Below are positions 21,551 through 51,620 of a stretch of DNA of 64,000 nt, piece by piece. The notes beneath the pieces were generated by a model that was not told where the DNA came from, searched no databases, and saw only the letters and a list, made by a program, of their open reading frames with translations. The DNA is from Ceratodon purpureus (Eukaryota; Streptophyta; Bryopsida; Pseudoditrichales; Ditrichaceae), in the NCBI GenBank assembly GCA_014871385.1, contig CM026426.1:695201-759200 (forward strand). The letters are read 5' to 3'. The stretch's first letter is position 1, and every line of letters begins with the position of its first letter. The position numbers were made by a program, and so were the translations under genes.

Positions 21551-21968
21551 TCAATTAATGTTGAAGTCGGCTTACACTGAAGGTGACGGCGGGAAGTAAT
21601 GCTGAGGGTTTAGTGACTGGTGATCACTAGTTAGGAGTGAGGAGAGTGTGGGCATGACCGGTGACCGCCGGTGACCGCTGTGAAGGAGTGACGGCATGAC
21701 TGGTGGTCGGGGGTGAGCTTCGTCTCGCACCTCTGTCGGGGGTCCAAGGTAGTGAGCTTTGTGTGTAGCCGAAGCTGCGACTGCGAGAGGAGATGCTGGA
21801 GCAATGGTTTTGTAGACTTTAGGTGCGTCTGTTGTGGGTTTAGGGGGGGGCGATGGTGAGCTCGGATTGTGGGGTTTAGGGTGTAGAGTTTTCTTTTGGT
21901 TCTTTTGGAGCGGTGAAGGTAGCATTGGTGGCTGTAGTTGGTGTTTCTGTGGAGGGGTGAGGCGCAGC

Positions 21969-24900: not shown

Positions 24901-26700
24901 GCGTGAGGTTTGCATCACCTATGAAGGCCGTCAAGAATGCGGGGCCAACAGTGGAAGGGGAGACAAGCCAGCCAACATGGTCTCTAGGCGATCCAGAAGA
25001 TTTAGGTGAAGAGCCGCAAAGGATTGTCAGGGGCGAGAGCATTAAATCTAGAGTTCCTCGAATGCTGGAGAAGCCGGTGGAGAAGGTGGTGATGGACTGT
25101 TTCACGGATGGGACTCATGTAAAGGAAGCTGAACCAGAGCTCGATTCGGGAGACGATTCTTCTTCTGACGAAGAGGACGACAACAAGATGGGCCCCTTAC
25201 CTTCAAGCTCCGGCACTACCGTCTCAGGTGAAACTTCGGAGACCAGTGATGGTGAGTCGAGGGAGGGTCAAGAGGATGTTGGAGACGGTGACATTTCAAT
25301 AGAGCCGCTCCCTTCAGATGGACATCTCCTTAGCCCGCCACCGCCAACGCCACCGCCACCGCCAGGAGCCGGGAGCAATGAAGGAGCGACGGCGGAGGGC
25401 CAAGAAGGAGGTAGGGGTTACAAGGCGGGTGGTTTAGGCGTTGTTGGAGGAGGGAGGAGGAGGGATGAAGGAGCGGGCGTCATTGGGAGTGGAAAGAAAA
25501 AGGGCGAGGCAGTTGAGGTTCTTGGGAGCGGGAGGAAGAAGGGCGAGTCAGTGGAGGATCAGCCAGCTGAGGAAGGGGACGGCGCTGTAGAAATGAAGAA
25601 GGGACACCCTGTTGGGAGCGGGAGGAAGGTTCGTGAGGCAGTGGAGGAGGCGAAAGCTAAGGAAGGGGACGGCGCAGCAGTGCCGAAGAAGGGTCCAACT
25701 GTCGGGAGCGGGAGGAAGATTCGTGAGGCTGTGGAGGTGGGGACAGCTGAGGAGCTACACGGCGCTGGATTGCCGAAGAACGGTGGCGGTCCGACTGTTG
25801 GGAGCGGGAGGAAGAAGGGTGAGGCAGTGGAGGAGGGGACAGCTTAGGGGCTACTCGTTGAATTATCGCCAAAGAAGGGTGGTGGAGTTGGGAGCGCGGG
25901 GAAGAAGGATGAGGCAGTGGCGGAAGGGGATGGTGCTATAGAGAAGGAGAAGGGACCGCTGACACCGAAGGAGAACGAGAAGGACGATGAGCCGCAGCCC
26001 GCGAGGAAGGAGACACCCAAGCCAGGGTCGCAATGCCTGCCGGGACGCAAGGCCAAGTTGCTCTGGGGAAAGTATGGTAAGGATGGAGGAGCCACGGCCT
26101 CAGGTTTTGTAGATACATTGGTGCAGGTGGAGGCTGCAGCCAAGTTCATGGCGGTTTCAAGACGGAAGGCGGAGGGGGGAATAAATGAGAGCATGGCTGC
26201 GGCAAAGGAGAAGGGCTCCATGGAAGCAGAGGAGGATATGGAGGATACAGAGGTCGTTATGGAGGATACTAGAGCCGAGATTGAAGTCCCTCGCGTGACG
26301 GATGATGAGCCTGCGGAAGGAGAGGGAGAAGAACAGTCGAAGGGTCATACGCCCTGGTCACCATTCAAGTTGAGATCAAGGAGACAAAAGGGTCCAACTG
26401 TAGAGGAGGACTCAGGGCCGGGACTTGAGGGGGCGATAGAGAATGTTTATTCCGCAGACAAGACCACATATAAGGAGCTGGCCGAGATTGTTGGGGGGAG
26501 TGGGAGTCCCGTTGCTGTCCCTAAAAGCCAATGTGCGGACCAGAGCACGCACCGCCAAGGAGGCCGAGCAAGCGGCTGAGGAATCCCCGGCATCGACCAG
26601 GGCTAAGGGTTGTAAGAGTGAGGGCAGAAAGAATGAGAAGGGAAAGGGTGACAAGGTAGGTGGCGGAATCTCACAGAAACGGCGGAGAGGCGCCACTTAG
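21969..26700 (+). CDS. unrecognised long protein: basic N-terminus, coiled coil, RING-like Zn cluster, repeats; two lesions
   Basis: Exon 1 runs 21969-23862 and exon 2 from 24895 (GT-AG, phase 1). I start at the ATG at 21969 rather than the upstream one at 21834, whose extra residues are Gly/Trp-rich and unlike the rest. In order: Arg/Lys/Glu-rich region, a conserved-looking block around FRRGTVSSDTVRKLFGKPYG, a long coiled coil (about 23.05-23.47 kb), then a Cys/His cluster (CCLCSFPFPQNDMVVSSC, HLYHPFC, CKCVAIGCGEICHP) resembling a RING/PHD-like zinc fold. Exon 2 encodes acidic Ser/Pro-rich sequence and about six imperfect repeats built on VGSGRKKGEAVE. A TAG at 25845-25847 interrupts the repeats in frame, and a shift near the G run at about 26.49 kb is needed to reach the Lys-rich end at 26700. 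Function unknown; nuclear location is likely from the basic tail. Confidence 0.5.
24241..24560. repeat. tandem repeat, 124-bp period, inside an intron
   Basis: Copies begin at 24241, 24365 and 24489 (TGTGTATTGCATGGTACTTG). A more diverged copy can be traced upstream from about 24.18 kb. Each unit carries several GTAC sites. Confidence 0.85.
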
Positions 26701-26981
26701 AATGAGGGCTTGAGCAATCTGTAGATTGCTTTTAGTACTTTATTTTTTTGGGTTTTTGATCTGTTGAGCTGCAGTAGAATGCTTGTATAGAACGGATTTG
26801 CAGGTATATTAATGTATCTTCCCTCATCACTGAGGTCTTCCTAACAGAGAAGGATTACGGCTTGTGTACTTTATTTTCCATGCTGATGTGTTATTTGCGA
26901 TCCATTGTGATTTCTTTGCATTTGTACTTATGTTAGTCTTCCCCAGCAGCCTTGGAACTTTGCATTTCTATTTTTAAGAGT

Positions 26982-28088
26982 ATGACGAGGGGAAGGTGGT
27001 CTGTTGGGATGGGATTCTTTCAGGCCGAAGCTTGGTATGATGCAGCAGATTTGTCTAAGGGACTCGAGAGGATCCCTGTCCTTGTTGGTCAGTCTGATAT
27101 TGCTATGACTTATTTTCAGTATATTAATTCTAGCTTGATCTATGACCAAGCACACGTGCCTACCACCCTTCAGAGCCTTCGACCCGGGGACTACTGTCTT
27201 TGTTCCTCGGAATGCTTGGGCGGGAATGGTACGTGTGCGTGCCAAGCCGATTCAGTGGGAGGAGTTGCATACACCGAAGGAGGCATTGTGGAGGATGCGT
27301 ATCTCTACAATCACAACGAAGAAGATGCACATTACTGTAAGAAGGGTAGACGGTGTTTTAATGGCGAATCAGTGTGCCGAGGTCATGTTCCTCGTCTTTT
27401 CCTTAAGGAGTACAATGTCAAGTGTAGGTGTCATAGTGATTGTGGCAATCGTGTTGTCCAGCAGGGGATGAAGTTTCAAGTAGAGGTTTTTTCTACAGCC
27501 CTTACGGGGTGGGGGATTCGGACGACTGAGCTAATACCTAGAGGTGCGTTCGTTTTTGAGTTGGCGGGAGAGATTTTAACAAATGCTGAGCAAATGGTTA
27601 GGAACGTGGGGGTAGTTGGGGGTCAGTCCTATAGCTTGCAACTTGATGCTGACTGGGCCACTGAGCGGAAACTGGACGACCACAATGCATTGTGCTTGGA
27701 TTCTACTCGATTTGGAAATGTGGCCAGATTTTTGAACCACAGGTTAGAACTTGCGACCATATTCTACATACTTTGCGGTCTTTCTTCTTACATTCTACGA
27801 TATGGCCTGACTGTGGGCCTCTGTCATTACAGGTGTGAAGATTCTAACCTAGTGGACATACCTGTTTCGATAGAGAGTGTGGATTGCCGCTTCTATCATG
27901 TAGCATTTTTTGCAAGTCGTATCATACGTCCTGGAGAGGAACTAACCTGGGACTATGGCACTAATTTTAACAATGATGATCCGGACCTACCTCGATTTAC
28001 TTGTAAGTGTATGAGTAAAATGTGTAGAGACAATGCCTTACCACTTGCCATCCGAAGGTCAGCCAGTAAACCACCTAGGAGAAGATGA
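26982..28088 (+). CDS. SUVR-like histone-lysine N-methyltransferase (pre-SET, SET, post-SET)
   Basis: Exons 26982-27742 and 27833-28088 give 338 aa. The 90-nt intron is in frame and stop-free, so the unspliced ORF also stays open. Splicing restores NHRCEDSNLVDIPV, the SUVR form of the SET cofactor-binding motif. Domains: Cys-rich pre-SET (CLCSSECLGGNGTCAC onward), SET from GWGIRTTELIPRGAFVFELAGE to GEELTWDYGTNF, then post-SET CKCMSKMC (CxCx4C). The Arabidopsis SUVR1/2/4 group acts on H3K9, SUVR4 at transposons. The N-terminal ubiquitin-binding region of SUVR4 is absent, so it is short or lacks upstream exons; the start is the first in-frame ATG and uncertain. All catalytic motifs appear intact. 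It lies just downstream of the coiled-coil gene, in a GTAC-rich region. Confidence 0.8.
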   Translation: MTRGRWSVGMGFFQAEAWYDAADLSKGLERIPVLVGQSDIAMTYFQYINSSLIYDQAHVPTTLQSLRPGDYCLCSSECLGGNGTCACQADSVGGVAYTEGGIVEDAYLYNHNEEDAHYCKKGRRCFNGESVCRGHVPRLFLKEYNVKCRCHSDCGNRVVQQGMKFQVEVFSTALTGWGIRTTELIPRGAFVFELAGEILTNAEQMVRNVGVVGGQSYSLQLDADWATERKLDDHNALCLDSTRFGNVARFLNHRLELATIFYILCGLSSYILRYGLTVGLCHYRCEDSNLVDIPVSIESVDCRFYHVAFFASRIIRPGEELTWDYGTNFNNDDPDLPRFTCKCMSKMCRDNALPLAIRRSASKPPRRR

Positions 28089-33167: not shown

Positions 33168-34065
33168 TCTTCACCGAGGAAGAACAACCGCCCTTAAACT
33201 CATGAACAAGAGTTATCGCACAGCATGCAAGCTAAACTACAGCACAAAGCAAAACCCTCAACACATTGTAAACCTCAACGCAACCAACAATATGCTACAG
33301 CAAACACGCAACAGTGTGCTGCATGGGCGATCAGAGGACATCAGTGAGAGAGACGATGACGTGGACAAATCAAAAGGTGGCGGCGCCTTCATGGCATGGC
33401 GGCCCGGGAAAACGGGATCTGTTGAAAAGAACGAGGCAGTAGTTATGACAGATTCCATGTACATCATATACTCATGCGTACATTTTGTACAAGTAGAACA
33501 CAGGAAGACGTCGAGGATCAAGTAACGGAAAAATGACCATTTTCATTATTTGACAGAAGGCCATTGTAGAAATGCGTGCCGCCGTCGAGTATAATGCCTC
33601 CGATTACGAAAAATCTTAATTTTCCACTTTGTATTCCGTTGCAACTGAAACCAGCACTTACTTCCATGTACAGACCAAATTAACTATGTACTTGTAAAAT
33701 CAGGGATAGATTCCAATAGGCTATTCCTTCTTATCTCCTTTGCAAAAAACGAAAACAGAATTAGAGCCTTTGATGTAAAAGAATTGTGTACTTTTCTCAT
33801 ATACAAGAACTGTGTGACCTTTTTGTACTAGTGCACAATAGTACAAATTGAACACACTTAACTTCATTTTCTAACTGATTCAATAATGCATAGGAAGTCC
33901 CTACATATGTAGTATTTGGAAAAACAAAACAAAACCCGAAGAAAAAGCTTCTGAGTACAGGTAATTAAAAGTACAAATTCATGCCTTCAATGTATAATGT
34001 ACTGTGACTCAAAAAGTACATTGGTCTAGCATACTTCCACCCATCTACCTTCCGGACCCTCGCCG
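33168..34065. other. divergent intergenic region rich in GTAC
   Basis: Separates the minus-strand transposase-like gene from the plus-strand ORF at 34066 and probably holds both promoters. About 12 GTAC sites occur in 33460-34030, against about 2 expected. A 144-codon frame at 33091-33525 (+) overlaps the other gene's first exon and has no recognised domain. Confidence 0.45.
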
Positions 34066-35850
34066 ATGGCAAATTCGGCTGCTTTTCTGTCTTGTTTTGG
34101 ACCAGAAGAAGAGTGCATGGAGATTGACACTCCCACTCAACATCTGAATAAGCGATCAGCGACAAAGGTCACACAGAATGTTGCAAGCACTGGAGCAAAC
34201 GGCGGTGGAGTAAGTAGTGCTGGAGCAAGTGGCGCTGGCGCAAGCAGCGCTGGTAAACGACCAAGAGAGAAAAACACCTCAGCCTCGACTTCACTCACCT
34301 CCCCGACGCCTCCTCTTCACGTCAGTGCGCCATCTCAGGCCATCCAGCGCCATCTGTGGCTGGGGTTTGAGAATATGGAGAAGCTGGCCTTGGAGCGTGG
34401 CTGCGAACCCCTCTTCACCGATGAAACGACGGCAGACAGAGTAACGCGAGGCATGCTCCAAGCAGAAGCTGCCGAAATGGAAGAGGTAAGCATTTCTTTT
34501 CCACGAGTCCTACAGTTGCTGTATCCTAGTACCAGGGGAGACGGTACTGCAGGACAGCACTTCAACCTTACGCAGGTACCATGTGACATACCCATTGACC
34601 CCATCACCTCTCTCTCTTTGGATTTTCAAATTTCAATCCATTTTGAACTCCCTAATACTCCCCTTTTCCACAACAATGTCAAAGAACTTGTAAGAAAAAG
34701 ATTGGAATTTATGAATATTCCTCTTGGTACTAAGCTTATTGAACCCATTTCAGTTATGTGTATGAGTGTAAAACGGGGTGGAGAGAAGGGGGTGTGGGCT
34801 GGAATAGTAAAATTACACCTCCTCCACCCTGAAATTGATGGTATTGCCCTCTTGAAGGGCTTAAGACCATTTATCTTGCTACTTGACTCTTCATCAAATG
34901 TGGGCACCTTGGGCAAGGTATGTAAGTCTTACCATGCCATTGCAAGAAATAATAATTTATCCGTTAAAATTACAAGTGAGAATTTGGTGAATGTGTCTCC
35001 ATATGCCCTCTTCTTTGATGTGTTGGAGAGCAGTTTTAGGAGAGGCTTCGATTTTGAGGTGGTGGATGTGCAAAAGAGCACTCCTCTTAACTATGCCTAC
35101 AAAGTTGCACCCACCCCTCTTCAAGCCAAGAGAATCAAAGAGAACCAAGTGACTACTCATCATGAGGTGCTAGTAGGGCAAATGAAGAAGGGTCCATCAC
35201 TTACCTTGGAGCAAAAGCAAAGGAAAGAAGCCCTCACTCTTACCCTCTACAATCTTCCAATTCTTATGAGTATTGATGCTACATCACTTGAAATTTACAA
35301 TGTTTTTGGAACCAAAAATGTGGTAAGCATTTGGTTCCACAAACAAGATGGCACTAAGCACAATGGTAGTGCTAATGTGGAATGCCTTAGCCCATTTGTT
35401 TATAAAAAATGGGTGGGTAAAGAAGTAAAAATTGGAGTTTACCACGTTGAAATTACCCCTCACCGTAGAAGCCTTGAGGGAAGTGAAAAACCCTCCAAGG
35501 AAGTGTTAGAAAAATTTGATTTTACTGACCCTAACGTGTGTTTGGTTAATACTGTGGAAGCCATTCAAAACCAACCTCAAGGAGAAGCAAGTGCTACCAA
35601 AGGTGAGGTTTTTACTATTATGAAGGAGGCAATTGAGGAAGGTAACAAGAAGTTGAAGGTGGAGTTACACAAGGAAATGACTGAGCTAAAGAAGGACATC
35701 ATCAAGAAGGCCCACCACTATGTCGATGATATTAACGAGAAGTTGAAGAAGCAGATGTTAGACATCCAAACTACACTTACCTTGGCACTCACCGGAATGC
35801 AACAATTTACCGATGAACTTTTACTTCAAGACAAGCCAAATGTGGATTGA
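34066..35850 (+). CDS. ORF1-like protein: low-complexity N-terminus, RRM-like domain, C-terminal coiled coil
   Basis: This 594-aa frame has a Gly/Ser/Ala-rich start with KRPREK (possible nuclear signal). A central region with LTLYNLPILM and HNGSANVECLS resembles RNP2 and RNP1 of an RRM, and the last 80 residues are charged and coiled-coil-like. RRM plus coiled coil is typical of non-LTR retrotransposon ORF1 proteins that coat the RNA, and a retrotransposon ORF follows on the same strand, so it may be its ORF1. However, the first 0.5 kb is more GC-rich and contains a donor-like GAGGTAAGC at 34493. The frame may therefore be a host exon fused by insertion to an AT-rich ORF1 that begins near 34.58 kb. 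It also differs strongly in base composition from the C/A-rich ORF downstream. Confidence 0.45.
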   Translation: MANSAAFLSCFGPEEECMEIDTPTQHLNKRSATKVTQNVASTGANGGGVSSAGASGAGASSAGKRPREKNTSASTSLTSPTPPLHVSAPSQAIQRHLWLGFENMEKLALERGCEPLFTDETTADRVTRGMLQAEAAEMEEVSISFPRVLQLLYPSTRGDGTAGQHFNLTQVPCDIPIDPITSLSLDFQISIHFELPNTPLFHNNVKELVRKRLEFMNIPLGTKLIEPISVMCMSVKRGGEKGVWAGIVKLHLLHPEIDGIALLKGLRPFILLLDSSSNVGTLGKVCKSYHAIARNNNLSVKITSENLVNVSPYALFFDVLESSFRRGFDFEVVDVQKSTPLNYAYKVAPTPLQAKRIKENQVTTHHEVLVGQMKKGPSLTLEQKQRKEALTLTLYNLPILMSIDATSLEIYNVFGTKNVVSIWFHKQDGTKHNGSANVECLSPFVYKKWVGKEVKIGVYHVEITPHRRSLEGSEKPSKEVLEKFDFTDPNVCLVNTVEAIQNQPQGEASATKGEVFTIMKEAIEEGNKKLKVELHKEMTELKKDIIKKAHHYVDDINEKLKKQMLDIQTTLTLALTGMQQFTDELLLQDKPNVD

Positions 35851-36084
35851 CCACAAATCGCCGAGGTAAAAAGTATTTACTGAAATACTACTATAGTTAC
35901 TTATTAGTACATTGGCATAGTATTTTACTTAGATTTTACCCTGAGGTAGATATTTTTTCCTATAGTAGAAAACATTTGTTTTTACCGTGTTTTAAATACG
36001 ATATGAAATATAATTACAATTACTGTACTTTACACTAGTGTAAATGTAATTACCAACCAAAACTCCATCTCCAACCATATTTAC

Positions 36085-36330
36085 AAATTCATCCAAAAGT
36101 TCATCCAAAACATAGATTTCATCCAAAATCTAGATTTCATCCAAAATCTAGATTTCATCCAAAATCCAGATTTCATCCAAAACCTAGATTTCATCCAAAA
36201 CCTAGATTTCAACCAAAACCCAGATTTCATCCAAAACCCAGATTTCATCCAAAATTCAGCTTTCCCTCAAACTTCAGATTTCCTCCAAATTTTAGACTCT
36301 CTTCAAAATTCATACTTCATCCAAAAATCA
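36085..36330 (+). repeat. 18-bp minisatellite (ATTTCATCCAAAATCTAG-like), about 12 units
   Basis: Units of 18 bp starting ATTTCATCCAAAA repeat head to tail and decay toward 36.33 kb. They lie just upstream of the retrotransposon ORF. Promoter-like repeat arrays occur in some LINE 5' regions; that role here is inference. Confidence 0.85.
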
Positions 36331-36419
36331 CTCTTTACTCAAAAATAAGACTTTACACCCCACATAGACACAATCTTAATACAAACCACCACTTCCAAAT
36401 ATCACAATACAACCATAAA

Positions 36420-39400
36420 ATGGCCTCGGCCTACCGGCCTCACCATAATACAAAACAAAAACACCAAATAACATACAAACTAATACCGAATATTGTAAGT
36501 AAATATGGTCAAATTCAAACCACACCATTTCCTGAACTCCACACCCAACTACAACAATCTAACACACCTATTTCCATTTCCTTAAATCTAAAAAAATTAC
36601 AAATACCCCCACTTGCCAAACCACTCTCTCAAAAAAATTACAAACAATACCAAAATACAAATCAAAAACTAGAAGTTACAGAAAAACTATCTACACCATT
36701 AATCCCCCTATACATTTCTTATCTTCTCTATCCCTTAGTTACATCTCTTCCCACCTTTCTTCTTCTCCTTTTCAAAATCTCCTCTTATTTCTCTTCTTCC
36801 TCCTTTTCATTTTCTCTCATACTTTTTTTATATTTTCACACTTCTTATTACCAAATCCTATTTTTTCTCACCCTCCCCTCTCTCTCTTTCCGTAACTCTA
36901 TTTGTTGTTCCCCCTCCTATCTACCCTTACCCCCCTGTTGGCACCTTCTCCCCTCTCTACACTCTCTCTCTACCCCACAACCTCCAACTCTACATCTTCA
37001 AACCAATAATCTCTCTAAAAAAAATCACAATCTACAAAATACTAAACCACCATTCCTACACATCCCTTATTCATATAAACATTACACATATAACACTATC
37101 TCTAAAAATCCCCTAAAAAGAAATCCATCACACCAGAAACTCATACTAAGTGGCGATATTGAGACCAACCCAGGACCCATGCCAGATTTACTTAAAAACC
37201 ACCCACCTGTACACAAACGACGTTGTAAAACCTACTTTTTACCCTGTACCATAAAACTCCACCCAGAATATCAACACCTTGCAAACTGCTTTTCACCCTT
37301 CCTCAATACAACACACCCAGATCATATCACAGTTAATACTGATTATCCCCACCTCTCACACTACATTTTACAAAAACATCACCCATCACCTAGAATCTTA
37401 TACGCACTCATCACCACTCTTAGCCAATCACCCGAAACATGCGACCAACTACTCATCGAGATTCCCAACCCAGACTGGACAAGTCTTCTTCTGGAAAAAA
37501 TGTTCAATTTACCCAACCCTCCAGAACGCCACATTCTCACCAAACACCCTTACATAGAATTCACACAAAACAATCTTCCACTAATAAAACCACCAGACAC
37601 CATACATACCGACGTATACAACTTTGTACATCAACACCACGATTCAATAAACCTTCAACAGTTAACAGAAAAATTCCCGTTCCTCCCAAATACACTATTA
37701 AAAGAAATACTTCGAATATATGAACCCATGCCAGAATATACACACCCCCCACCATTACCAGACATACCCCACGTCTCACCACAACAAACCCCCACAACCG
37801 CCCATACTACAAAATTCACTACATGGAACGCCGCATCACTCAATACAGCCCTTCCAAACCTACAAGAATTAATTACCAACACAACAGACGAACCTGCCAT
37901 CATAACAATACAAGAAACCAAACTCACTGCTACAAAATCCACAAAATATATATAACGCTTATTTCCAAATTATAAACTATTTTTTAATAACACACATGCC
38001 TTGACACGCTGCATACAACAACAGATGCCATACACACCGACAAGAGGCGGTCTTCTCACAATGATCAACAAAAAATATGCATACCCAGGCAACATCACAA
38101 AAATCCCCACTCCAAAAGAAATATCTCTCTACTTACAGATAATACAAATTAATAACAAACCACTACAAACACTCCTCATACTACATATATATATGCCATC
38201 CCACGTAGAGGACATACAATACATACCAATCATACAACAACACATCACACAACAACTCAATACACACCCAACTTTTACCCACATTCTTTGCGGCGATTTC
38301 AATCGCGATATTGATCTTTGCGGGCGGCAAACTGAACACAACACTACACCCCCACAACCTGAAGACATAGAATGGCGAACCTTTACAGATAACCTCCAAC
38401 TTCAATACATCCCCACAAACTGCCCATTTACAAGACAAGGAGGAAATAACTATACTCAAACCAGCCTTATAGACGGCTTCTACATAAAAACCACAAACAA
38501 CACAATATTTACTTCCACTACAGACAACAACCATAACCTCAACTCCGACCACTCTCCCGTCACGTTACACATCCCACCGAACATACTACTAGCAAAACCT
38601 AGTCTCCCAATAAACCAAACTCCAAGACTACTCAACCCAATTCCACAAGAGAATATGGATAAATTTAAACTCGAATATTTTGAGGAAAATGCCCTGATTA
38701 TAAATGAACTTACTACACTACTCTCCATAGAACATCTTACAGACAACCAATGGCAAACTTCCTGCACGCAACTAGATCATTTAATTCATAACATATCTGA
38801 CAAAATACAGGAAACTTGTAGTGCACCTCCCCTCCCAATACTAACAGCCCATACATCCCCACAAGGAGGTTTTCTCCCTCGAAAACTACAAAAAACCTTG
38901 GAAGAAACATCTAGCTACATACCACCTCATCCGTAAAACTATCTATATAACAAAAAATTCACCAAACTGGCAAACACACCCCATAATAGAAGAACTAAAT
39001 AACCACACCAATACCACAATCCCACCACTTCCAACTAACGAAGCCCTTCAACAAGCTTGGATCCAAACCATAGCTGACATAGCCAAACAATCAAAACTCC
39101 ACACTCGGAAAATCACTACTAAACATACCCAACAATGTGTCAAAAAAGCAATATTCAAATACAGACAACTATATGACAAAAGCCCAAAAAAGATAAACAA
39201 ACAGGTCTTCAAAAACCAAGACACACCCCCATTAGATTGCATTCTAGACCGTAATAACAACATTCTCACCAACCCAGAAGATATCGCAATTGAAATCCAC
39301 ACTCAACAATCCATTAGTAACCGACCCACAGTACCTACATGCTATTTCCAACCTGAACACCCCCCACAATGCAACTGTAGAGTTAGACAGTACCCCTGGC

Positions 39401-42400
39401 ACGACCTAGATGGCTTTGTCTTAGAAAAACGCGGAAACCCCCATATCCCGCTTCACAAACATTTTACTAAAGAAATATTTGAAACATGTCTTAAAAACTT
39501 ATCTAGCTACAAAACTCCTGGCCCAGACAAAATCCCAAACTCAATTCTTAAAAACATGCCAGAAAATTTCCACGAACTACTCTTCCTCTTTTTTACCCAT
39601 TGCTATAAACAAAAACAAATTCCCACCTCATGGAAAACAAGTCTTACCATACTACTCTATAAAAAAGGAGACCCTACCCAACTGCCTAACCATAGACCAA
39701 TTGCCCTAGCAAACACAATTTACAAATTTTTCACAAGTACTTTAACATACATATTATCAGCAAACGGGGAAGAATATCAGATATTACATGATAGCCAAGA
39801 AGGCTTCAGAGCCGAACGAAGCACAGCCCGTCAGCTACAACTTCTCATTGCCGCACTAGAAGATGCAAAATTCACCAACCAAGATATATACTTGCTCTAT
39901 ATCGATTCTAAAAATGCATTTGGCTCCCTCGACCATGCCAGACTCCTTGCTGTTATGAAAGACCTCGGTTACCCAATCGACGCAATCATGCTAATTGGAA
40001 ACATATACTCCCACTCTCACACAATAATCTGCGGTGAATATTTTGGTAAAACAAAACCAATACCGATTCAAAGAGGCACCATACAAGGAGACACACTCAG
40101 CCCCTATCTTTTTCTTATATTTCTTGAACCACTACTTCGCTGGCTACAAAAAGGGAACTATGGTTACACATTTGGAACATCTAAAATCAACATTAGCTCT
40201 GCAGCCTATGCAGATGACCTTGCTGCCCTAACACACACTTTAAATTCTCTACAAACCCAACTCAACAAAATTGACAGATTCTGCAAATGGGCAGGAATGG
40301 ATCTCGGAGTTACAAAATGTGCTGTCACTGGTTGCCCTAACAAAACCAAAATGCAACCCACCAAATTCAAAACCCACATACAAAACTACCGAATCATCTA
40401 TAGAAATCAACTACTCCTAGTACTTCATCAAAACGAACCCTATACTTACTTAGGCATACAATTAGTCCCCTCTCTTAAATGGAAAATTCAAACACATATT
40501 ACTACTACTAAAGTCATCGACCAATGCAAACAACTAACCAAATGCCCAGCCTCAATAAAACAAAGAATTAGCATGATTGATACAGTCATCCGAGCTGGCA
40601 TTGCCTACAGTTTCTTTGCAGTCCCATACTCACTACCAACCATTAAAAAACTTGACAAAAAAATTATTGCCATCCAAAAAACAATATGCGGACTCTCAAG
40701 GAGCACGGCCAACATAATCACACAACTCCCCCACGAATTCTTTGGCTTGGAAGCCTTCTCCCTAAAAAACGCATACCTCAGATGCATTAGTGAACAACTC
40801 CGTAATGCACTAAACGACAAAGGACGCCTCGGAATAATCTATAAAGGATTAATTCACCACATACTTGCCAAAGCAGGCGGTGCCAAAGATTTCCCAAGAA
40901 TTAAACCCCAAGACTGCGTACAATCTCCAACAACACGCACACTCTACCTTACAAAAACAGCAAGTGGTATGCATCTCAAAAGCACAGAAGAAACCTTTCC
41001 GCTGCATCAAACCGAATTAGAACTAGAATGGACGTCTAATACTACCACTGAACTCCCACATTTAGACCCCCAACTCTCTCTCAAACTCTTATATAAACTT
41101 CTAGCCCTAAACATACATACAATAAAACATCTTACCCTCCCAAATGGCACACACCTAATGTCCCCAGAAAACTTTACAATTTACTACCAAAAACCTACCA
41201 GGCTAGAAAAAAACGCCCTCAATCTAGCAGAACAACTTTTTTGTAAACAAAAATGCACTGCCCTCTGCCCAGATACTTGCCAATCACACTCACCCCCATA
41301 CACATTAAAAGACATATACAAACTAGACAACCACCAAATAATACCACGTAGACCTGTCCAACCAATACAAAACCCTCTAAATCTTCAAACACCTACACCA
41401 AAGCCTCCCCCAAAAATGCTAAAAGATCCCATCAAATACCCCATCTACACAATACTAAAACATAAAACAACCACAACAAAAGACAAATATAAAATTTCCA
41501 AAACATATAACTCTTACTTATGCCAATGGATTGATACAAACCAAATCATATACAAAAAATGGCTCGCCCAACGACACTTGTTCCCACTAAACCGGCCACT
41601 AGTAATCCAACACAACCAACACCTCCTCACCAATTACTACACACAACACAGAAATCAACATTATCAACATATCATAAACGCATTATTTACACCTGCTCAA
41701 CCCCGAGACACAAGATTCATACCCCCGCCAACTATCACTTCTAACATCAAAACCTCCACAATCGAATGTAACCCTGAAAGAGACATCGTTGCCACAAAAT
41801 GTACCCTCCACACACAAACCGACATAACCCACATATACACTGACTCTGGAAAGTATCTCACCACCATCCCCACTACAAGGATAGCTTGGCTATGGCAACA
41901 ATATAACACCAACAAACACAAAAACCACAGAATCATACCTGCCATACAAAACTTTGAAACAGAAGTAGCTTGGTTATATCAAAGATACGCACACAAAACC
42001 AGCAAAACAAACCCTAAACAAACGCCACATCATTCCATCCCATCCCCAATTCTAGACACACTCATTACAACCTTTCAAATAACTCACTCATACTTCTCCT
42101 CACCAATTACATGCTCCACTACACATACCCAATTTTACTCACAATTCCCACGAGATAAAATATTTGGCTCGTTAGGCACTGCCTTTGAATATATATGGAA
42201 AGGCATTGGATATGCTCACCCTCACAATGCTGCAACAGCACAACACGCCATCCATTGGGCCCGATTAGCATCAAAACATGACCCTAATACCATCACCATC
42301 TTAGCTCTCCTAGACTCTAGCTGGTACCAAAATCTATCACCATACATAGGCCCCTATCCAGATACACATGCCTTAATCCACTTTGCCGCTGATACCATCA

Positions 42401-44178
42401 CATATGACGAACCCACTCGACTTCCCGACAAAACAACACCTGAACCTTTAGCAATACATATTTGGTGCATTCACCACCAAAACAACACTCTTCTTAACCC
42501 CAACCAAATCAATACACTAAATACAACCCTAAATACCCTACACATCCCACACTACCACACCCAAATTATACCACCAACACCATCCAACACACAAGTCAAC
42601 AAAAATAAAAAATGGAACACATCATTATACCCTCCATACCAAAATCCACAACATCATCACACACCACCCATACCAACCTATGACATCCCTACTACACTCA
42701 AATTCTTACCACTTCACAGCTACTACACAGATGGCTCCTTCCTACCACCGCAAAAAGCAGATGACGGACCCTGGAAAAAAGAAAAAGCAGGCTACGGAAT
42801 ATACAACCCATCTAAACCTGACATACAAATATCAAAAAGATTACCTGGACTCCAAACATGTTTTCGTGCAGAACTCATGGCTATACATGAAACACTCTTA
42901 ATACTTACAACTAAATATCATAACGAACCCGCACATATCTTTACGGATTGTCTCAACTGCATTCATGTTCTCAACACACAACTCCAGCACCCTACTCAAC
43001 AGAATAACCATGCAGACAAAACAATCCTACAAGAAATGGTTGAGATGCTCAAAAAACGTACACAACCCACGACAATATACAAAGTCAAAGCACACTCCAA
43101 AATTGACGGCAATGAACAAGCAGATAAACTAGCAAAAGCCGGTACTATGAAACGCAACTATCAAAAAGCTGCAAAACCACACGAATTTGCACATACAACA
43201 CCTTATTACTTTCATAAAGACACATGGCCCGGCCCACACAAACGACCAGATAAAGGACCAATCCGCAACTTAGAAGAATATATAAAAAAATACGACCGCG
43301 ACAATAACCTCATAGAATTAGCCCTGAAATTTCCTAATATAAACAAATGGACATCAAATCCCATTATAGATAAAACACTATCTAATGACTTTTGGAAAAA
43401 TCCCGAAATAACCGACTCCCAGAAGACAAGCATACTCAAATTCAGAACCGGTCAATACATGGGAAACGCCCGCAAACAACTAATTTTTGGCATACAACGA
43501 TTCCCCTCAAAAAACTGCTCCATTTGTAATACACAAGATGCAGATACTTGGCTACATGTATTATTATTATGTCAACATCACCACATTCATGCACTTCGAA
43601 TAAAAAGACACAACAAAGCCGTATGGGAATTAAGAAAACTCATACTCTCCTCCCAAAAATCAAGATGCTACACCCTTATGAATGCAGGAACATTTAACAA
43701 CACCCCACAAGAAAATACAGTACCACCTTGGTTACTACCATGCACGTGCCATCAACGTAGATGCAAATGCAACGCTAGACTCAAACTAGATCTACTATGC
43801 ATCAAAGGCCTCCCCTACCAAAGCCTACCCCCACTTCGCCCCGACAAAAACTTGACCATACAATTTATCGAATTCACCTACACAAATGATAGATTTTCAC
43901 CCGAAGCAATTGGCAGAAAAATTATAAAATACCTACCTCTAATTAATGACATCACCAACCACGGATGGAAAGTTGACCCTATCCTAATTATCACAGCCGG
44001 AGCCCGAGGCACCACACACATTCCCCCAATGCAACAACTCGAAAAAACATTCAAAATCTGTGAAAACTCCATCAGACATACATTCAAAGCAATCAATACC
44101 ATTGCCATCCAACATGCAGCCTCAATCCTACTACATAAGCGCCGAATAGAAAATAACCAACCATTACCAATAGAATAA
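36420..44178 (+). CDS. retrotransposon polyprotein: 2A - APE endonuclease - RT - RNase H - RLE (one stop, one frameshift)
   Basis: Frame 36420-37955 continues in the same frame after a single TAA to 38936; the frame then shifts near 38.88-38.93 kb and runs open to 44178, about 2.58 thousand codons in total. Order: polar start; hydrophobic stretch (residues about 93-155); 2A motif (residues 241-253); APE endonuclease (TTWNAASL, IQETKL, CGDFNRD, IDGFYIK, SDHSPV); RT (GFRAERSTARQL, YIDSKNAFGSLDH, GTIQGDTLSPYLF, AYADDLAAL at about 40.2 kb); RNase H (YTDGS, FRAELMAI, TDCLN, GNEQADKLA at 42.7-43.1 kb). The C-terminal RLE has CSIC...H...C, KRHNKAVWEL, LKLDLL, IEFTYTND and KIIKYLPL. RT makes cDNA by target-primed reverse transcription; the endonucleases nick target DNA. 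Two lesions over 7.7 kb suggest a young dead copy or sequencing errors. Confidence 0.85.
37140..37178 (+). other. 2A-like ribosome-skipping motif (LILSGDIETNPGP)
   Basis: Codons 241-253 of the retrotransposon ORF read LILSGDIETNPGP, matching the 2A consensus D(V/I)ExNPG-P with the usual upstream Leu/Ser/Gly. Separation would fall between Gly (37173-37175) and Pro (37176-37178), leaving a product that starts PMPDLLK. 2A motifs are known in some non-LTR elements, including trypanosome L1Tc and sea-urchin LINEs. Confidence 0.9.
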
Positions 44179-44223
44179 ATCTAACACCCTCACAATAAAA
44201 CAAAACTATGTAAAAGTGAGAGT

Positions 44224-44239
44224 AGTGGTAACAACCACT
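44224..44239 (+). other. hairpin in retrotransposon 3' UTR
   Basis: AGTGGT (44224-44229) and ACCACT (44234-44239) form a tight stem with a 4-base loop about 45 bp after the stop codon, followed by a T-rich tract. 3' stem-loops in LINE RNAs can be recognised by the RT. Confidence 0.45.
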
Positions 44240-44274
44240 GCTAGCCACTCTTTTTTATTTTTTATTTTTTAACT

Positions 44275-44659
44275 AGCTCAGCTTGTCTCAAAGGGATAGG
44301 GGGCCGGTTGGTTGCCACAAACTTTCCTGCCATGATCACTCACCAGCAGCACATCACCGCTCAAACGAGCCCAGCAAGGTTCGAACCCGGACCAATTAAA
44401 TGAGATACTACACCTCACTCCAACCAACCACTGATGTCATGACTTGGTGACATTGTTCTTCTCAAACTTGCAATTATGCAAACTTTACCAGTATTCTATT
44501 GCACTAAAAGACTAGGCACTTGTTCCCTGGTTACTATAGTGTCCATTCTCGAAAGGGGAGAGTAGTTTTGTCTCAATGTCCCTCCGTCCTGTGGACACCG
44601 GGTCATTGACATTACGAACGGACACTTTATTCACGCCGGCCCTTATTGGGTTGGTGTTT
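44275..44659. other. spacer with Pol III box-like sequences
   Basis: TAGCTCAGC at 44274 and GGTTCGAAC at about 44380 resemble tRNA A and B boxes, but they are about 105 bp apart and no cloverleaf forms. It may be a decayed SINE. No gene seen. Confidence 0.3.
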
Positions 44660-45049
44660 CTATCTATCTATCTGCGTCGAATCGAGCAAGTAGGCGGGGT
44701 CGATCGCGAGGCCTGCGAAGAGCTCAAGTGACCTTTAGCCACGCGGTGGAAGTAATGTGGGGCCCCATTTCTCAGCAATGAGGTAGTGGAGGGTCGTGCG
44801 AGGGTTGAGGAGGCGACGGCCCTGCTTCGAGGAGTAGGAGAGCAGTTTCGTGCCGTCCGACCATAGCCAACGGCTTGGGTCAAAATCCAGGCGGGCAATT
44901 TGATCGACGAAGAGTAGGGTCGGGACGGAGGCGTTCCCTCGGCCAAGTAAGGTCACTCAAATTCCTCGGACGAACCCTAAAAAGTCCACATGGGGGGCTG
45001 GGGGATCAGGAGGAGGCTCGGGGCGAAGGTGTCGGGTGAGTGCCCCAAC

Positions 45050-45999: not shown

Positions 46000-47353
46000 G
46001 GGGAAGCACAATAAAGTGTACCACAAAGTGCAATATGTGATCACTAAGAAGTGAATATGAAGTGTGCTGTTTTTTAAAGCTCAAAGCTGATTTTGAGCAT
46101 TTTGATGTAGTTTTTGAGCATTTTAGTCACTTTTTAAGGTGTCATAAGGTATCTTATAGGCATCTCCATTAATAAACATCTTCAATTGAAACTAAATTTG
46201 ACCACTAGTTCTAAATCATGAAAATGAACTTTTCCAAAGTCTTGATTTCTTCATTTGGGGCCCTTTATTGTCTTTAGAGGATGTTTTTTCCAATTTAAAA
46301 AACAATGTTCGGTAAAAAAAACCTCACAAAAAGTTTCACGGAAAACAGTGTTTTAAAAACGTCCCTGAAATACTTCTCGTCCGTCCAAACTTTCATTTGA
46401 AGTGGTCATTGTCATTTCTACAACCGCAATTCACAAACAAAGGTCCCCATGGAATCAAAAGTGATTCCCGACAACATTTGACGGATGTTCTTATCACTTT
46501 TTCAAATGACTGCAATCACTTTGTCGGACTTTGAGGTTCTCGTACGGCATTGTAGAAGACGCGAATTCTTACAGTATTCTCCCACACTTTAGATAATCAA
46601 GTCTATTTTCTAAACCTAGACTTCTTCCCTACATACCAACAACCGAAATTCCACTTTTTTATGTTTCTGCGATAGGGACTGTGTTAAAGGGATTTTTTGC
46701 CTTTTTTACCTAGGAGCAATAAAACAGGAGCAGTAACAGTGAACTGCTAGGAACAGTAAAAAAATTAGTTACTGGCTTGTTACTAGTCATTGCGTTTTGG
46801 ATGAAGTTTTGACAGTCGGATGAAAAATCGACTCGGATGAAAAACGGACAGTGGATGACGACGGCTAGGGTTTGGGGGTAGTGAGGAGTGAGGCTATGGC
46901 GGCTCTCACTCTCTCTCAGCCTCTTGTGTTTTTTCAGAGGTATGGTAGTATAGTAGGATGAGGTTAGGAGGTAGAGAGGAGATGTTACGGCTGTGGAGCA
47001 GGATCTAGGAGCAGGATCTAGGAGCAGGATCATTGTACCTAGCAGAAGAAATGAGTAAAGTTCCTTGGGATTTACAGATCACATGGTGTATTGAATGCTA
47101 GGGTTAGGTTCGAATTGAATGAGGAGTCCTTGCATTGATGTTCAGATCAGGAGCAGGGAGCAGGTTACTGGTGTAAGCAGGATCAGATTCGTTAGAACCA
47201 GCAAAGACGGATCAATATTACATTTTTTGGGGATTTTGATTTGGCTTAGAAGAAGTAACCAAGCTTTTTAAGGGTGAAGCTTAATCACCCTTTAACAGAC
47301 TGAAATTGGCAATGAGCGGAGCACTTTTTTGGTACACTTTATTGTGCTTCCCC
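46000..47353. mobile_element. short non-autonomous DNA element with 23-bp inverted ends, inserted in the LINE
   Basis: Bases 46000-46022 are the exact reverse complement of 47331-47353 (GGGGAAGCACAATAAAG...). Similarity extends inward with an indel (AAAGTGC). LINE coding sequence resumes on both sides, so the insertion is real. Removing the nested solo LTR and one 5-bp duplication leaves about 733 bp with no coding capacity. Flanks share GAGAG (45995-45999 and 47355-47359) with a one-base offset, so the target duplication and superfamily remain undecided. Confidence 0.7.
46682..47297. repeat. solo LTR, copy 1 (616 bp), nested in the short DNA element
   Basis: Begins TGTTAAAGGG and ends CCCTTTAACA (TG...CA with short inverted ends) and is flanked by the perfect 5-bp duplication GACTG (46677-46681, 47298-47302). 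No internal retroelement domains adjoin it, so it is a solo LTR left by recombination. It is closely related to 56767-57380. Confidence 0.85.
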
Positions 47354-49733
47354 TGAGAGTCGACGTCGGAGGTAGAAAGATTGAGGGTGAATGGTGTCCC
47401 CAATAATTTGGAGAGCGCCCGGTCCTCGGCCTACACACAGGCAAACTCTTGGAGCCAATCACGGGACCTTGCCCGAGAGAACCAATAGGCGACGGACTTT
47501 GTCCAATTCACCGTGAGCCCGGAAGCAAGGCGAAACAAATCAAGCAGGGCAATGAGAGCGCAAAGATAAGTGGCGGTCTCGGCCAGGGAGTAGCTGGTGT
47601 TATCAGCGTACTGAGACACCAACTGTTGACTCTGACCGCCGGGGAGAGTGATACTGAGAAGACATCCGGAGGTCTGAGCTGCAAGGCTCGCGGCATGCAG
47701 AGCCTCCCGAACGATCAGGAAGAGGTAGGGTGCCAGGGGGCACCCTTGCCTCACCCCATGTTGAATCGGGAAGGTCTCCGTGAGTCGGTTGTTAACCGAC
47801 ACTGCAGCTGTGGCGCCATGCAGCAGCATTTGGATAAGGTGAACAAAGGGCGCTGGGATGCCAAGCTTGTGCATGGCCCGAAAAAGGAACGTATAATCCA
47901 CGGAGTCATAGGCCTTTTGGAAGTCGAGTTTGAGAAAAATCAAATTCTGCCTCGACTGATCCGCCGAGGCGATAGTTTCAGCCTGCAACAGGAAGTTATC
48001 CAAAATGTAACGGCGAGGGAGAAAGGCCGACTGCTCAGGGCTAATCACCTCGGGGAGGACGGCCTGCATCCGCAATTGCATGGCTTTGGCGACTATCTTA
48101 TATTAGGAATTCAGGAGGGTGATCGGGCACCAGTTGAGGAGGAGGAGGAGATCCCCGGCCTTGGGAAGGAGGACGACGGTGCCGCTGGTCATCCCGGGAG
48201 GGAAGTGACCAGCGATTACAGAGGCCTAAACCATCTCAGTGAAGTCGTCTCCGTGAAACGGCCAGCAGGCCTGGAAGAACTCGATAACCACTCCGTCTGA
48301 CACGGGGCTACAGCCCTTGGCCAATTTCAGACAAGCCTCCTTAAGCTTGCCACTAGACAGAGGACAAGCGAGGGCGGCCTGCATAGTGTGTGTGAGCCGG
48401 GCCGGGAGGTGTTGGAGGATAACATCCTGAGCCAAGCGTGACTCAGGAGAGAGAGCAGGAGCGGAGTACATGTCGGCATAGAAATGCCTGCAGTAGGCAG
48501 CGACTGCAGGAGGATTGGTGACAATGTATTGTCAATTAGATCGGAGAGGAGGGATTGAGGTGGCCGATCTTGTACTGCAGCGAAGAACTCCTTGGTGACC
48601 TGGTCACCAAGGGCCTTCTAACGGATCTGGCTGCCGAGGCGTCTTTGAGCCGTCTATCGGGTCTCAAATTGGTTGAGAGCTTGTTGACAGCGGCTCGCCT
48701 CAGCCTGGGCTGGGAGATCATGAGGGCGTAAGTGAAGCGCGGCCAGAGCAGCATTAAGGGCCGCTTGAAGGCCCTCGACCTCAGTCCCACGTTGGGCGGC
48801 CTTAGTCTTGCAATGCTCACGGTAGAAGCGAACGAGGTGGGGGAACTTCGTGAAGAAAGGGGCATGCACCGGCTGGGAGAGCCAAAGCTCCCGGAGCTGG
48901 GGCTGTAGCGCCTTAATGTACTGCGTGGACATGATCTAGCAACTCCGCCGAGCGAGCTCCGGACAGAGTTGGAGCTGGACGGAAACAAGGGAGTGATCCG
49001 ACAACGAACCATCCCCATGGATGCGGTTTCCGAGAATAGCCTGGCCTCCAGAGGGGGAGAAGGAATAACAACGATCTAGCCTCGTGAGGACGCGGGTGCT
49101 GTTGACTCTACAGTTGTCCCACGTGTAGAGGAGGGAATTGTCGGTGCGGGGAGGCTCAGAGATTCGGTGGGCAAATTTGAGGGCATTAAAGAGAGTGCGT
49201 TCCCTGCCGCCAATGATCCGACCGCATTGGGAGGATTTATCCCGGCGTACCTCAACCATGTTGAAGTCACCGAGGACCACCCAATGGCAGTGGCGAGGGA
49301 GTTCGCGAAGGAGCGTCTCTTAGAGGACGCAACGATGAAGAAGATCTTTGGGAGCATACAGATTTGAAAACCGGCAATCGCCCCTAGGGAGGCCACTCAG
49401 AACAAACCAGGAGGCTCAGTAATTGAGGGCGATACCGGTAGCAGTAACGAATTTCCCCTACTTCGGGCCAAAGAGAGTGGTGAGGCCCCCACGGCCAGCA
49501 TGACGGCTGTCAGGGGTACCGGTGTAGCCCGCGGAGGCTTCAAGCGTTCAGCAGCAAGCGTCCTTCCATAGGACACGGCCCAGCCGTTGGGCAGGCTCAT
49601 GGCGCAGCTTGGTTTCCTGAAGGAAAATAAGATCCAATGCAGGCTTTTGAGAGCAAAGATAGCGACGAAGAGTCGCTACCGAGGAGACCTTATTGAGTCC
49701 CCGGACGTTATAGGTAAGAATGTTGAATTTCAT
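47354..49733 (-). pseudogene. L1-type LINE ORF2: APE endonuclease and reverse transcriptase
   Basis: Starts at ATG 49733 with MKFNILTYNVRGLNK and FLQETKLR (APE motifs). It continues in another frame with VLGDFNMVE, TRLDRCY and SDHSLVSV (49280-48936). RT follows: SPEQSAFLPRRYILDN, FLKLDFQKAYDSVD, GVRQGCPLAPYLFLI and QYADNTSYS (48081-47431). The last Asp of the usual YADD is Asn, and stops and frameshifts are frequent, so the enzyme is dead. Typical plant L1 order. Confidence 0.8.
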
Positions 49734-51620
49734 TGACGACGGCGGGGTCGAGAGTGCTGAGCAGCTCCCACGCCGAGAGGGGGAAGGCGGCTCCAGAGAG
49801 AGAGGGGGCGACCTTGGGCGTCCACGCCAAGAGGGGCGTCATTGCTAGGGACCGGATCAGGGCCTCGTCGAGCCGCGGCCTTAGCCTGACGAACGGAAGA
49901 GCCTTGAAAGGCGTGCAGCAAGCGGGCTTGGCGAATGGCCGTGAGATTAATGTCAAGGGACAAATAGGGAAGGGGGGAAGGGGTGTCGGAAGGAGGAGGG
50001 GAGCAGGAGGGGTCCTGGTTTGATGGTAAGGCGTCTACAAAATTGTCTTCCGTAGAGCTAGAATCCTCTGCTTCCGAGGATCGGAAAAAGATCCGGCCCC
50101 GTGGGGAGGGTCCTATGGGGGCGGTGGTAGAATGACGGCGATGCTCCGGAGAGCCAGGATGGGGACGACGGTCACCTTCTGACGGAGGGAAGTAGGGGAC
50201 GTGCGCGCCGGAGAAGCCCGCCAATCGGGTGATCGACGAGACGACAGAGGGGTGGGGAGTTGACGGGGAGGAGAGAAAAGAGTCCACCCGCAAGGGATCA
50301 TGAAAGGTGCCTTGGGGGGGAGCGGAACCATGAAGTTCAGAAATATGACAGGGAGTAGCACCATCCCGTAACGGAGGGGGAGGGGGGAGTGGGTAGAGGG
50401 CCAGGGGTTTTTTGAGGGTGGAAGGAGGAGGAATGGCGAGAAGGCCGGGAAGCGGCACAGGAGGGATCCTGTCAATGTCCATATGGGTAGCAGTCTTGGG
50501 AAGCTGTGGAGCACGGGGGGACTGTCGCTGGGGAGGTGTGAGGGTGTGGCCGCGGCGGCCGCAAGGGGATGCGGAGCTAGAGCCACTGGTTTGATTCCCC
50601 CGAGTGGAGGGGTGCACTGCTGCAATGTTGCACAGTAACCCAGCCATCCGCATCCGGGGCAGAGTGCCGAGGTTGACGAGGTCGGGAGGGGTGTCGGAGG
50701 AGCAGCCGGCAAGGCTTGTGAGCCCACACGGGTGGGTGAGGAGTTTCTACAGGATCCTGCTGCCAGGGTGACGGTTGAGCAGGGGCTCGCCGGGGAGGAT
50801 GGGCAGGGTTGTCCAGCAAAGAGGCAGACTTAGGCTCGGGAACCGGGCAGGGTGAGACCAAGCTCGGAGAGACTTGAGGACGGAGAAAATTGTAGTCTAG
50901 AGGGACCTCTACCGTATAGCCATCAGAATAACGTACACCGATATGCGACGGCCAACCACGGCTGACATCTATGGCCACACAAAAGCGGTGTTCATGGGAT
51001 GGGGCGGAGGGAGGCTTTGCGTCCAGCACTTGCCCCAGCTGATGGGCTATCAGGCGCAGAACCAGGCTCAGTTCAAGCGGTAAAAATCGAAAAGAAAACC
51101 AGGAGGGAACAAGGACTCCTTGTGGGCGTTCGGGGGTGAAGCCAACCTTCCACGGTTGGTAAAAAGCCGTACCACCAGGGAACTGATGCGTCGTGTGGAG
51201 GAGGCGTTGAGTAACCTCGGCACTGTCAAATTTGATGTAAAAGAACCCGTGGCCGGCCTCGCGCTGCCACAAGATGCGTCCCGGATGCGCCAAGCAAGTT
51301 AGGTCCGTCAACCAGTTGTCCCGGGCAGAAGGCGACAAACGACCTGCTATAAAGGAGACAATGACAATCTGACTGCAGACCTGGGCAATCTCCTATTGCA
51401 GGAGCCGCCGGGGGAATAATGAGGGTGAAATGGGCACAATATCTCGGAAGAGAAACCCTGCAGGATGGCGAAGCGTGACGGGAGGGAGAACCTCCCCCAA
51501 GGAAGGTTGAAACGGGTTGAGCCACAAGCCGAGAGCAGGGCCTGTAGGAGGGGCGAGTCCGGGAGGAGCAGGGCGCCGGGAGGCCCCGGGGAAGGCCTTC
51601 AATGGAGGGGAAGGATCCAT
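49730..51620 (-). pseudogene. L1-type LINE ORF1, frameshifted
   Basis: Begins near ATG 51620 (MDPSPPLKAFPG). The first part (51620-50577) includes a compact domain with GHGFFYIKFDSAEV and LSLVLRLIAHQLGQVLDA, like the DUF4283-type RNA-binding region of plant L1 ORF1. The rest (50653-49730) is Pro/Ser-rich. It overlaps ORF2 by a few bases. At least two frame changes break it. Confidence 0.6.

What the first reader, a model, noticed from the sequence alone, without database searches (positions are those of the whole stretch)
36420..44178. Non-LTR retrotransposon with two different endonucleases plus a 2A ribosome-skipping motif
Seen: one ORF track with LILSGDIETNPGP, a full set of APE motifs (WNAASL, GDFN, SDHSPV), RT (YADD), RNase H (YTDGS, RAEL, TDC, EQAD) and, at the C-terminus, an RLE signature (Cys2-His-Cys, KRHN, LDLL, EFTYTND, KIIKY). 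Known: elements encoding both APE and RLE are rare (Dualen/RandI, Chlamydomonas), and 2A is known in other LINE clades. The combination in one element, in a plant-like genome, seems to me undescribed.
Basis: partly seen in the sequence, partly recalled or inferred. Interest (0 to 1): 0.9.

Follow-up and report, generated by a model that had tools for sequence, protein, structure and literature searches.

The report
Dual-endonuclease LINE with methyltransferase-like domain
A moss-like genome carries a jumping gene whose protein holds two DNA-cutting enzymes, a ribosome-skipping signal, a chromatin-reader-like domain and a domain resembling the enzyme that methylates the start of messenger RNA; it appears to belong to a little-studied group known from green algae.

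Summary
This is a Dualen-type LINE with APE, RT, RNase H, an R2-like RLE and a 2A motif. The endonucleases are not from nested elements: 8 of 18 fetched copies read 2A-APE-RT-PCIF-RNase H-RLE in one stop-free frame, and 48 of 48 relatives with all five domains share the order. The window copy is broken (a stop in APE, a frame change) and larger than stated: about 34,049-44,673, with an ORF1 at 34,066-35,850.

Host: probably the moss Ceratodon purpureus, sex chromosome (inferred from assembly sizes). Verdict: new variant of a known kind, with a domain architecture for which I saw no report.

The parts
34049..44673 (+). whole element: 5' limit is where homology among copies begins, 3' limit is the end of a (TATC)n tail
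34066..35850 (+). ORF1, 594 aa, no Pfam match at its cut-off; matched by tblastn in 13 of 18 fetched loci
   Evidence: 84.8-97.5% aa identity in 6 near copies, 36-39% in 5 of the 62% family, 25% in L015 and L018
36039..36362 (+). 18-nt tandem repeat between ORF1 and the ORF2 ATG; also present, with different extent, in other copies
36420..37955 (+). ORF2 first segment from an ATG that reads MASAYRP; ends at a stop codon 37,953-37,955. That this ATG is the true start is uncertain: MASAY was found in 7 of 18 fetched copies, and in frame and open to the 2A only in L009, L019, L025, the window and relative P0027
37140..37178 (+). 2A ribosome-skipping motif LILSGDIETNPGP; predicted skip between codons 37,173-37,175 (G) and 37,176-37,178 (P)
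37809..38579 (+). APE endonuclease domain, broken by the stop at 37,953-37,955
38845..44178 (+). ORF2 second segment in another frame (frame change lies within 38,845-38,936)
39478..40695 (+). reverse transcriptase (YADD)
41410..41670 (+). chromodomain-like fold (PHD finger inserted in some relatives)
41737..42408 (+). PCIF1-like (cap m6Am methyltransferase fold) domain; the place of NPPF reads AHPHN at 42,214-42,228
42724..43143 (+). RNase H
43366..44154 (+). zinc knuckle (CCHC) plus restriction-like endonuclease, R2-like
44179..44660 (+). 3' UTR, conserved among copies
44661..44673 (+). (TATC)n 3' tail, of different length in different copies

Best explanation
A broken copy of an autonomous Dualen-type LINE. 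Shown: ORF1, then ORF2 with leader, 2A, APE, RT, chromodomain-like fold, PCIF1-like domain, RNase H and zinc-knuckle RLE; copies with a stop-free ORF2 in the same genome; low dN/dS in the domains tested; a 3' tail of variable (TATC)n. Inferred: the ribosome skips at NPG/P, so that the enzyme protein is made free of its variable leader; the chromodomain-like part (with PHD in some relatives) tethers the protein to marked histones; APE and RLE cut the two strands, in an order unknown, for target-primed reverse transcription; RNase H removes the template RNA. The PCIF1-like domain, descended from a cap-adenosine methyltransferase, is kept for binding, most likely of the 5' end or cap of the element's own RNA, and has probably lost catalysis in this lineage because the NPPF motif is replaced.
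Confidence: 0.8

Rival explanations
1. The PCIF1-like domain is still an active adenosine N6-methyltransferase, acting on the element's RNA cap (m6Am), its RNA or its cDNA, with an unorthodox active site (NPEY or H-P-x).
For: Fold and the FASPL and D..FG motifs are kept; the first Asn is kept in 44 of 84 rows, P0014 and P0061 keep NPP, and P0024 has SPPF, which fits the usual (D/N/S)PP(Y/F/W) pattern (pattern recalled); low dN/dS.
Against: NPP is kept in only 2 of 84 rows and SPPF in 1; 28 have NPEY, 11 NVPA (Haematococcus), and the window has HPH.
Confidence: 0.2
2. APE and RLE belong to two elements, one nested in the other, and are read together by accident.
For: The window copy is split over three open stretches.
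Against: 8 of 18 genomic copies are open from 2A to RLE; 48 of 48 relatives with all five domains have the same order.
Confidence: 0.01
3. The NPGP motif is conserved but inactive in skipping, and the leader stays attached.
For: The upstream context varies a lot and no translation assay was possible.
Against: GDIE(T/S)NPGP is exact in 16 of 17 copies across two families about 62% identical, while the leader before it is poorly conserved; 2A motifs also occur in P0008, P0027, P0019, and five Haematococcus proteins, and a shortened one at the start of P0115.
Confidence: 0.1
4. The PCIF1-like and chromodomain-like parts are host genes captured recently by this one family.
For: Captured methyltransferases are known in other retrotransposons (PMC5890265, passages read).
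Against: The PCIF1-like domain is in 72 of 72 long proteins (window's included) spread over the RT tree. The chromodomain-like part was not counted across the tree.
Confidence: 0.03

Closest known systems
Dualen/RandI group of non-LTR retrotransposons (Kojima and Fujiwara 2005: paper not held, content recalled; group mentioned in PMC4640811 and PMC8226300, passages read)
   Same: APE and RLE in one element, RT, RNase H; the RT clade contains Haematococcus and Parachlorella proteins, and a Pleodorina protein was among the RT hits
   Different: Moss-like host instead of a green alga; 2A motif; ORF1; PCIF1-like domain and chromodomain-like fold, for which I saw no description; no cysteine protease detected here
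R2 (RLE LINE; 9nl2, 9nl3, 8gh6)
   Same: RT is closest by sequence to R2 among solved structures; zinc knuckle plus RLE fold
   Different: Has also APE, RNase H, PCIF1-like and chromodomain-like parts; no shared target sequence in the 3' flanks of 4 copies (by eye)
APE-type LINEs with 2A (Odon et al. 2013: not held, seen only as a title in reference lists)
   Same: D(V/I)ExNPGP motif (motif as given in PMC4981915)
   Different: Here an RLE is present as well; RT clades not compared
PCIF1 cap-specific adenosine-N6 methyltransferase (6irv, 6irx)
   Same: Methyltransferase core fold; FASPLN and D..FG motifs in relatives
   Different: NPPF replaced; only the core (human 417-668) is aligned; embedded in a polyprotein
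SymbioLINE-Dnmt and DIRS elements with methyltransferases (PMC5890265, passages)
   Same: A methyltransferase-type domain inside a retrotransposon
   Different: Those are C5-cytosine DNMTs or Dam-like; here the PCIF1 family, between RT and RNase H
Chromoviruses (chromodomain Gypsy; PMC12477314, passages)
   Same: Chromodomain-type fold in the enzyme protein
   Different: Those are LTR elements with the chromodomain on integrase

Membership tests
Dualen/RandI | both APE and RLE encoded by one element (PMC4640811, passage) | tested here: met
Dualen/RandI | RT phylogeny: groups with green-algal Dualen | tested here: inconclusive
   clade with Haematococcus and Parachlorella proteins separated from R2 (2), L1 and P0003 at 0.989 and UFBoot 98; no sequence labelled Dualen was available, only 4 outgroup sequences, and the place between R2 and L1 is not resolved
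Dualen/RandI | RNase H | tested here: met
Dualen/RandI | cysteine protease (recalled from the abstract of the 2005 paper) | tested here: inconclusive
   no Pfam hit in ORF1 or the ORF2 N-terminus; Josephin listed for relatives, sub-threshold Josephin in P0019 and OTU in P0007
2A peptide | D(V/I)ExNPGP | tested here: met
2A peptide | skipping activity | not testable with these tools
   needs a translation assay
RLE of R2 type | CCHC, R-H, PD, D/E residues and fold | tested here: met
   the Pro of PD is Leu in this copy but Pro in 61 of 65 rows
PCIF1 methyltransferase | PF12237 above its cut-off and PCIF1 fold | tested here: met
PCIF1 methyltransferase | catalytic NPPF | tested here: not met
   HPH in the window; NPP in 2 of 84 rows, SPPF in 1; so it is filed as PCIF1-like, not as PCIF1
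PCIF1 methyltransferase | N-terminal helical domain and WW domain | tested here: inconclusive
   only the core 417-668 aligned
chromodomain | chromo fold and sequence profile | tested here: inconclusive

The most novel reading that the evidence does not exclude
A whole, ancient LINE clade spanning green algae and mosses carries a cap-methyltransferase-derived domain and chromatin readers beside two endonucleases, and uses the PCIF1-like domain to recognise or mark the 5' end of its own RNA during target-primed reverse transcription: a retrotransposon that checks its template's cap.
Probability: 0.3. Interest if true: 0.88.

Novelty: new variant of a known kind. Interest (0 to 1): 0.66.

Why it matters
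Dualen's position has been used to argue how LINEs replaced RLE by APE (PMC4640811, passage), so its full anatomy bears on that history. A PCIF1-like domain present in 72 of 72 long proteins of the clade is the only case I know of (from memory and the searches named) of a cap-adenosine methyltransferase fold inside a retrotransposon, and offers a direct test of how a LINE might recognise the 5' end of its RNA. Copies with a stop-free ORF2 exist in one genome, so the division of labour between APE and RLE becomes testable.

Tried and rejected
Nested elements: rejected. Relatives in viral contigs: none (two peptide patterns, 302 stretches, none confirmed). Rfam at gathering threshold and ARAGORN (bacterial code) on the window: nothing. 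Stand-alone PCIF1 proteins close to the element's domain: the profile search gave 20 hits among the 7,997 candidates scored; those with Pfam annotation bear PF12237, PHD or RNase H, and one hit is from Pyramimonas. No protein named PCIF1 was among them, but candidates were capped and length-limited, so the origin of the domain is open. Target-site duplications: none of 8 bp or more adjoining in 4 of 4 copies examined; an earlier look used wrong limits. The upstream ORF 34,066-35,850 was first taken for a neighbour because its base composition differs, then shown to be shared by copies. A deubiquitinase in the window element: not found. NCBIfam adds nothing on ORF1.

Literature: in the listings (capped lists; titles and starts of abstracts) and in the passages I read (PMC4640811, PMC5890265, PMC8226300, PMC8000587, PMC4981915, PMC12846837, PMC12477314; part 1 of 4 of PMC6338049) I saw no report of PCIF1, a chromodomain or 2A in Dualen. 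The 2005 Dualen paper and Odon 2013 are not held, and the list is mostly German texts, so absence in print is not shown.

The genome-wide copy number could not be counted: one search scored 30 of 2,204 candidates, and later requests did not complete.

Full report
1. What is there. Pfam finds APE (2.3e-07), RVT_1 (3.1e-26), RNase_H (8.8e-16) and, unexpectedly, PCIF1_WW (1.5e-11, 44.7 bits against a cut-off of 31.1) between RT and RNase H. The copy is not one ORF: a stop lies at 37,953-37,955 within the APE, and the frame changes within 38,845-38,936.

3. Not nested. The own genome (362.5 Mb, 151 contigs) holds many copies: 30 of 2,204 candidates were scored, the window itself, 12 at 83-97% identity and 17 at 62%. 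I fetched 18 of the 29 others: 11 of the 12 and 7 of the 17. In 8 (L010, L012, L015, L018, L020, L023, L024, L025) the longest stop-free frame holds 2A, APE, RT, PCIF, RNase H and RLE in that order. The other 10 are truncated, interrupted or shifted. Of the 8, L010, L012 and L015 match all 13 catalytic-motif patterns I tried; the other five lack an exact match to one or more, so activity is not shown. Of 123 RT-bearing proteins (window's included, P0003 left out), 48 have all five domains, in the same order in all 48; of 79 with at least 500 aa before RT, 79 have APE; of 72 with at least 1,100 aa after RT (window's included), 72 have PCIF, 72 RNase H and 71 RLE. These HMMs were iterated on the same set; independently of them, 44 of the 120 listed relatives bear PF12237 (counted by hand).

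4. Element limits. ORF1 (34,066-35,850) is matched in 13 of 18 fetched loci: 84.8-97.5% amino-acid identity in 6 near copies, 36-39% in 5 of the 62% family, 25% in two. Homology at the 5' side begins at 34,049-34,066 in the 4 copies whose upstream part was read, a few bases before the ORF1 start, with different sequence before it. At the 3' side it ends in a (TATC)n tail, with 3, 1, 2 and 2 units in the window and three other copies. The tail fits target-primed reverse transcription (inference). No adjoining duplication of 8 bp or more was seen.

5. 2A. Homology to the window reaches this place in 17 of 19 copies (18 fetched plus the window; in L014 and L026 it begins further downstream). All 17 have NPGP there, and 16 have exact GDIE(T/S)NPGP; L013 has a changed residue and a stop just before it. 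The leader before it is poorly conserved, the residues after it well conserved. Where ORF2 starts is uncertain: MASAYRP is in frame and open to the 2A only in L009, L019, L025, the window and P0027. L016 has a second 2A-like motif upstream. Relatives P0008, P0027, P0019 (a second, NPGE, lies upstream in it) and five Haematococcus proteins have the motif, and P0115 a shortened one at its start. In P0019 it precedes a sub-threshold Josephin match; the five Haematococcus proteins are listed with Josephin, whose place after the 2A I read by eye. Skipping is inferred.

8. Phylogeny. 117 RTs of the clade separate from R2 (2), L1 and P0003 with support 0.989 (FastTree, 121 sequences) and 98 (UFBoot, 28 of the clade and the 4). 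The window groups with P0004-P0006 (1.0). Haematococcus and one Parachlorella protein are within the clade. No labelled Dualen sequence was at hand, and the order of R2, L1 and P0003 is unresolved.

9. Host. One 110.5-Mb contig in a 362-Mb assembly fits Ceratodon purpureus, about 360 Mb with U and V each over 100 Mb (PMC8000587, passages); the window is on that contig. A DUF4283 and an RT ORF nearby fit plant L1 elements (recalled). This is inference, not a name given by a tool.

10. Comparison. [quoted passage not shown] Retrotransposons with C5 or Dam-like methyltransferases are known (PMC5890265, passages). I saw no report of a PCIF1-like domain in a retrotransposon; the two most relevant papers were not held.

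Noticed in passing
window 47431-51338, - strand: RVT_1 ORF (47431-48081) and DUF4283 ORF (50577-51338): remains of what looks like a plant-type L1 LINE.
   Followed up: no
window 36039-44178: Sense strand of ORF2 is extremely G-poor (G 5.6-11%, A 37-39%, C 29-32%), unlike the element's own ORF1 (G 23%).
   Followed up: partly
window 46000-46027 and 47326-47353: 28-nt inverted repeat, 96% complementary, 1,298 nt apart: possible small DNA transposon.
   Followed up: no
window 20001-28000: Stretch of strong positive GC skew (0.23-0.37), containing a SET-domain ORF at 26952-28088.
   Followed up: no
window 8720-11455, - strand: 911-aa ORF with a sub-threshold Ulp1 protease match.
   Followed up: no
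L016, nt about 1932: A second 2A-like motif (CGATEQNPGP) about 980 nt upstream of the usual one; P0019 also has a second, AGIEPNPGE.
   Followed up: partly
P0057: A clade member listed with a C5 cytosine methyltransferase domain (PF00145) beside PCIF1_WW.
   Followed up: no
P0131: A Pyramimonas protein (EukProt) matched by the PCIF-domain profile, so the clade may reach prasinophyte algae.
   Followed up: no
window 44280-44440: The 3' UTR holds GGTTCGAACC, which looks like a tRNA B box on either strand; no tRNA called there.
   Followed up: no
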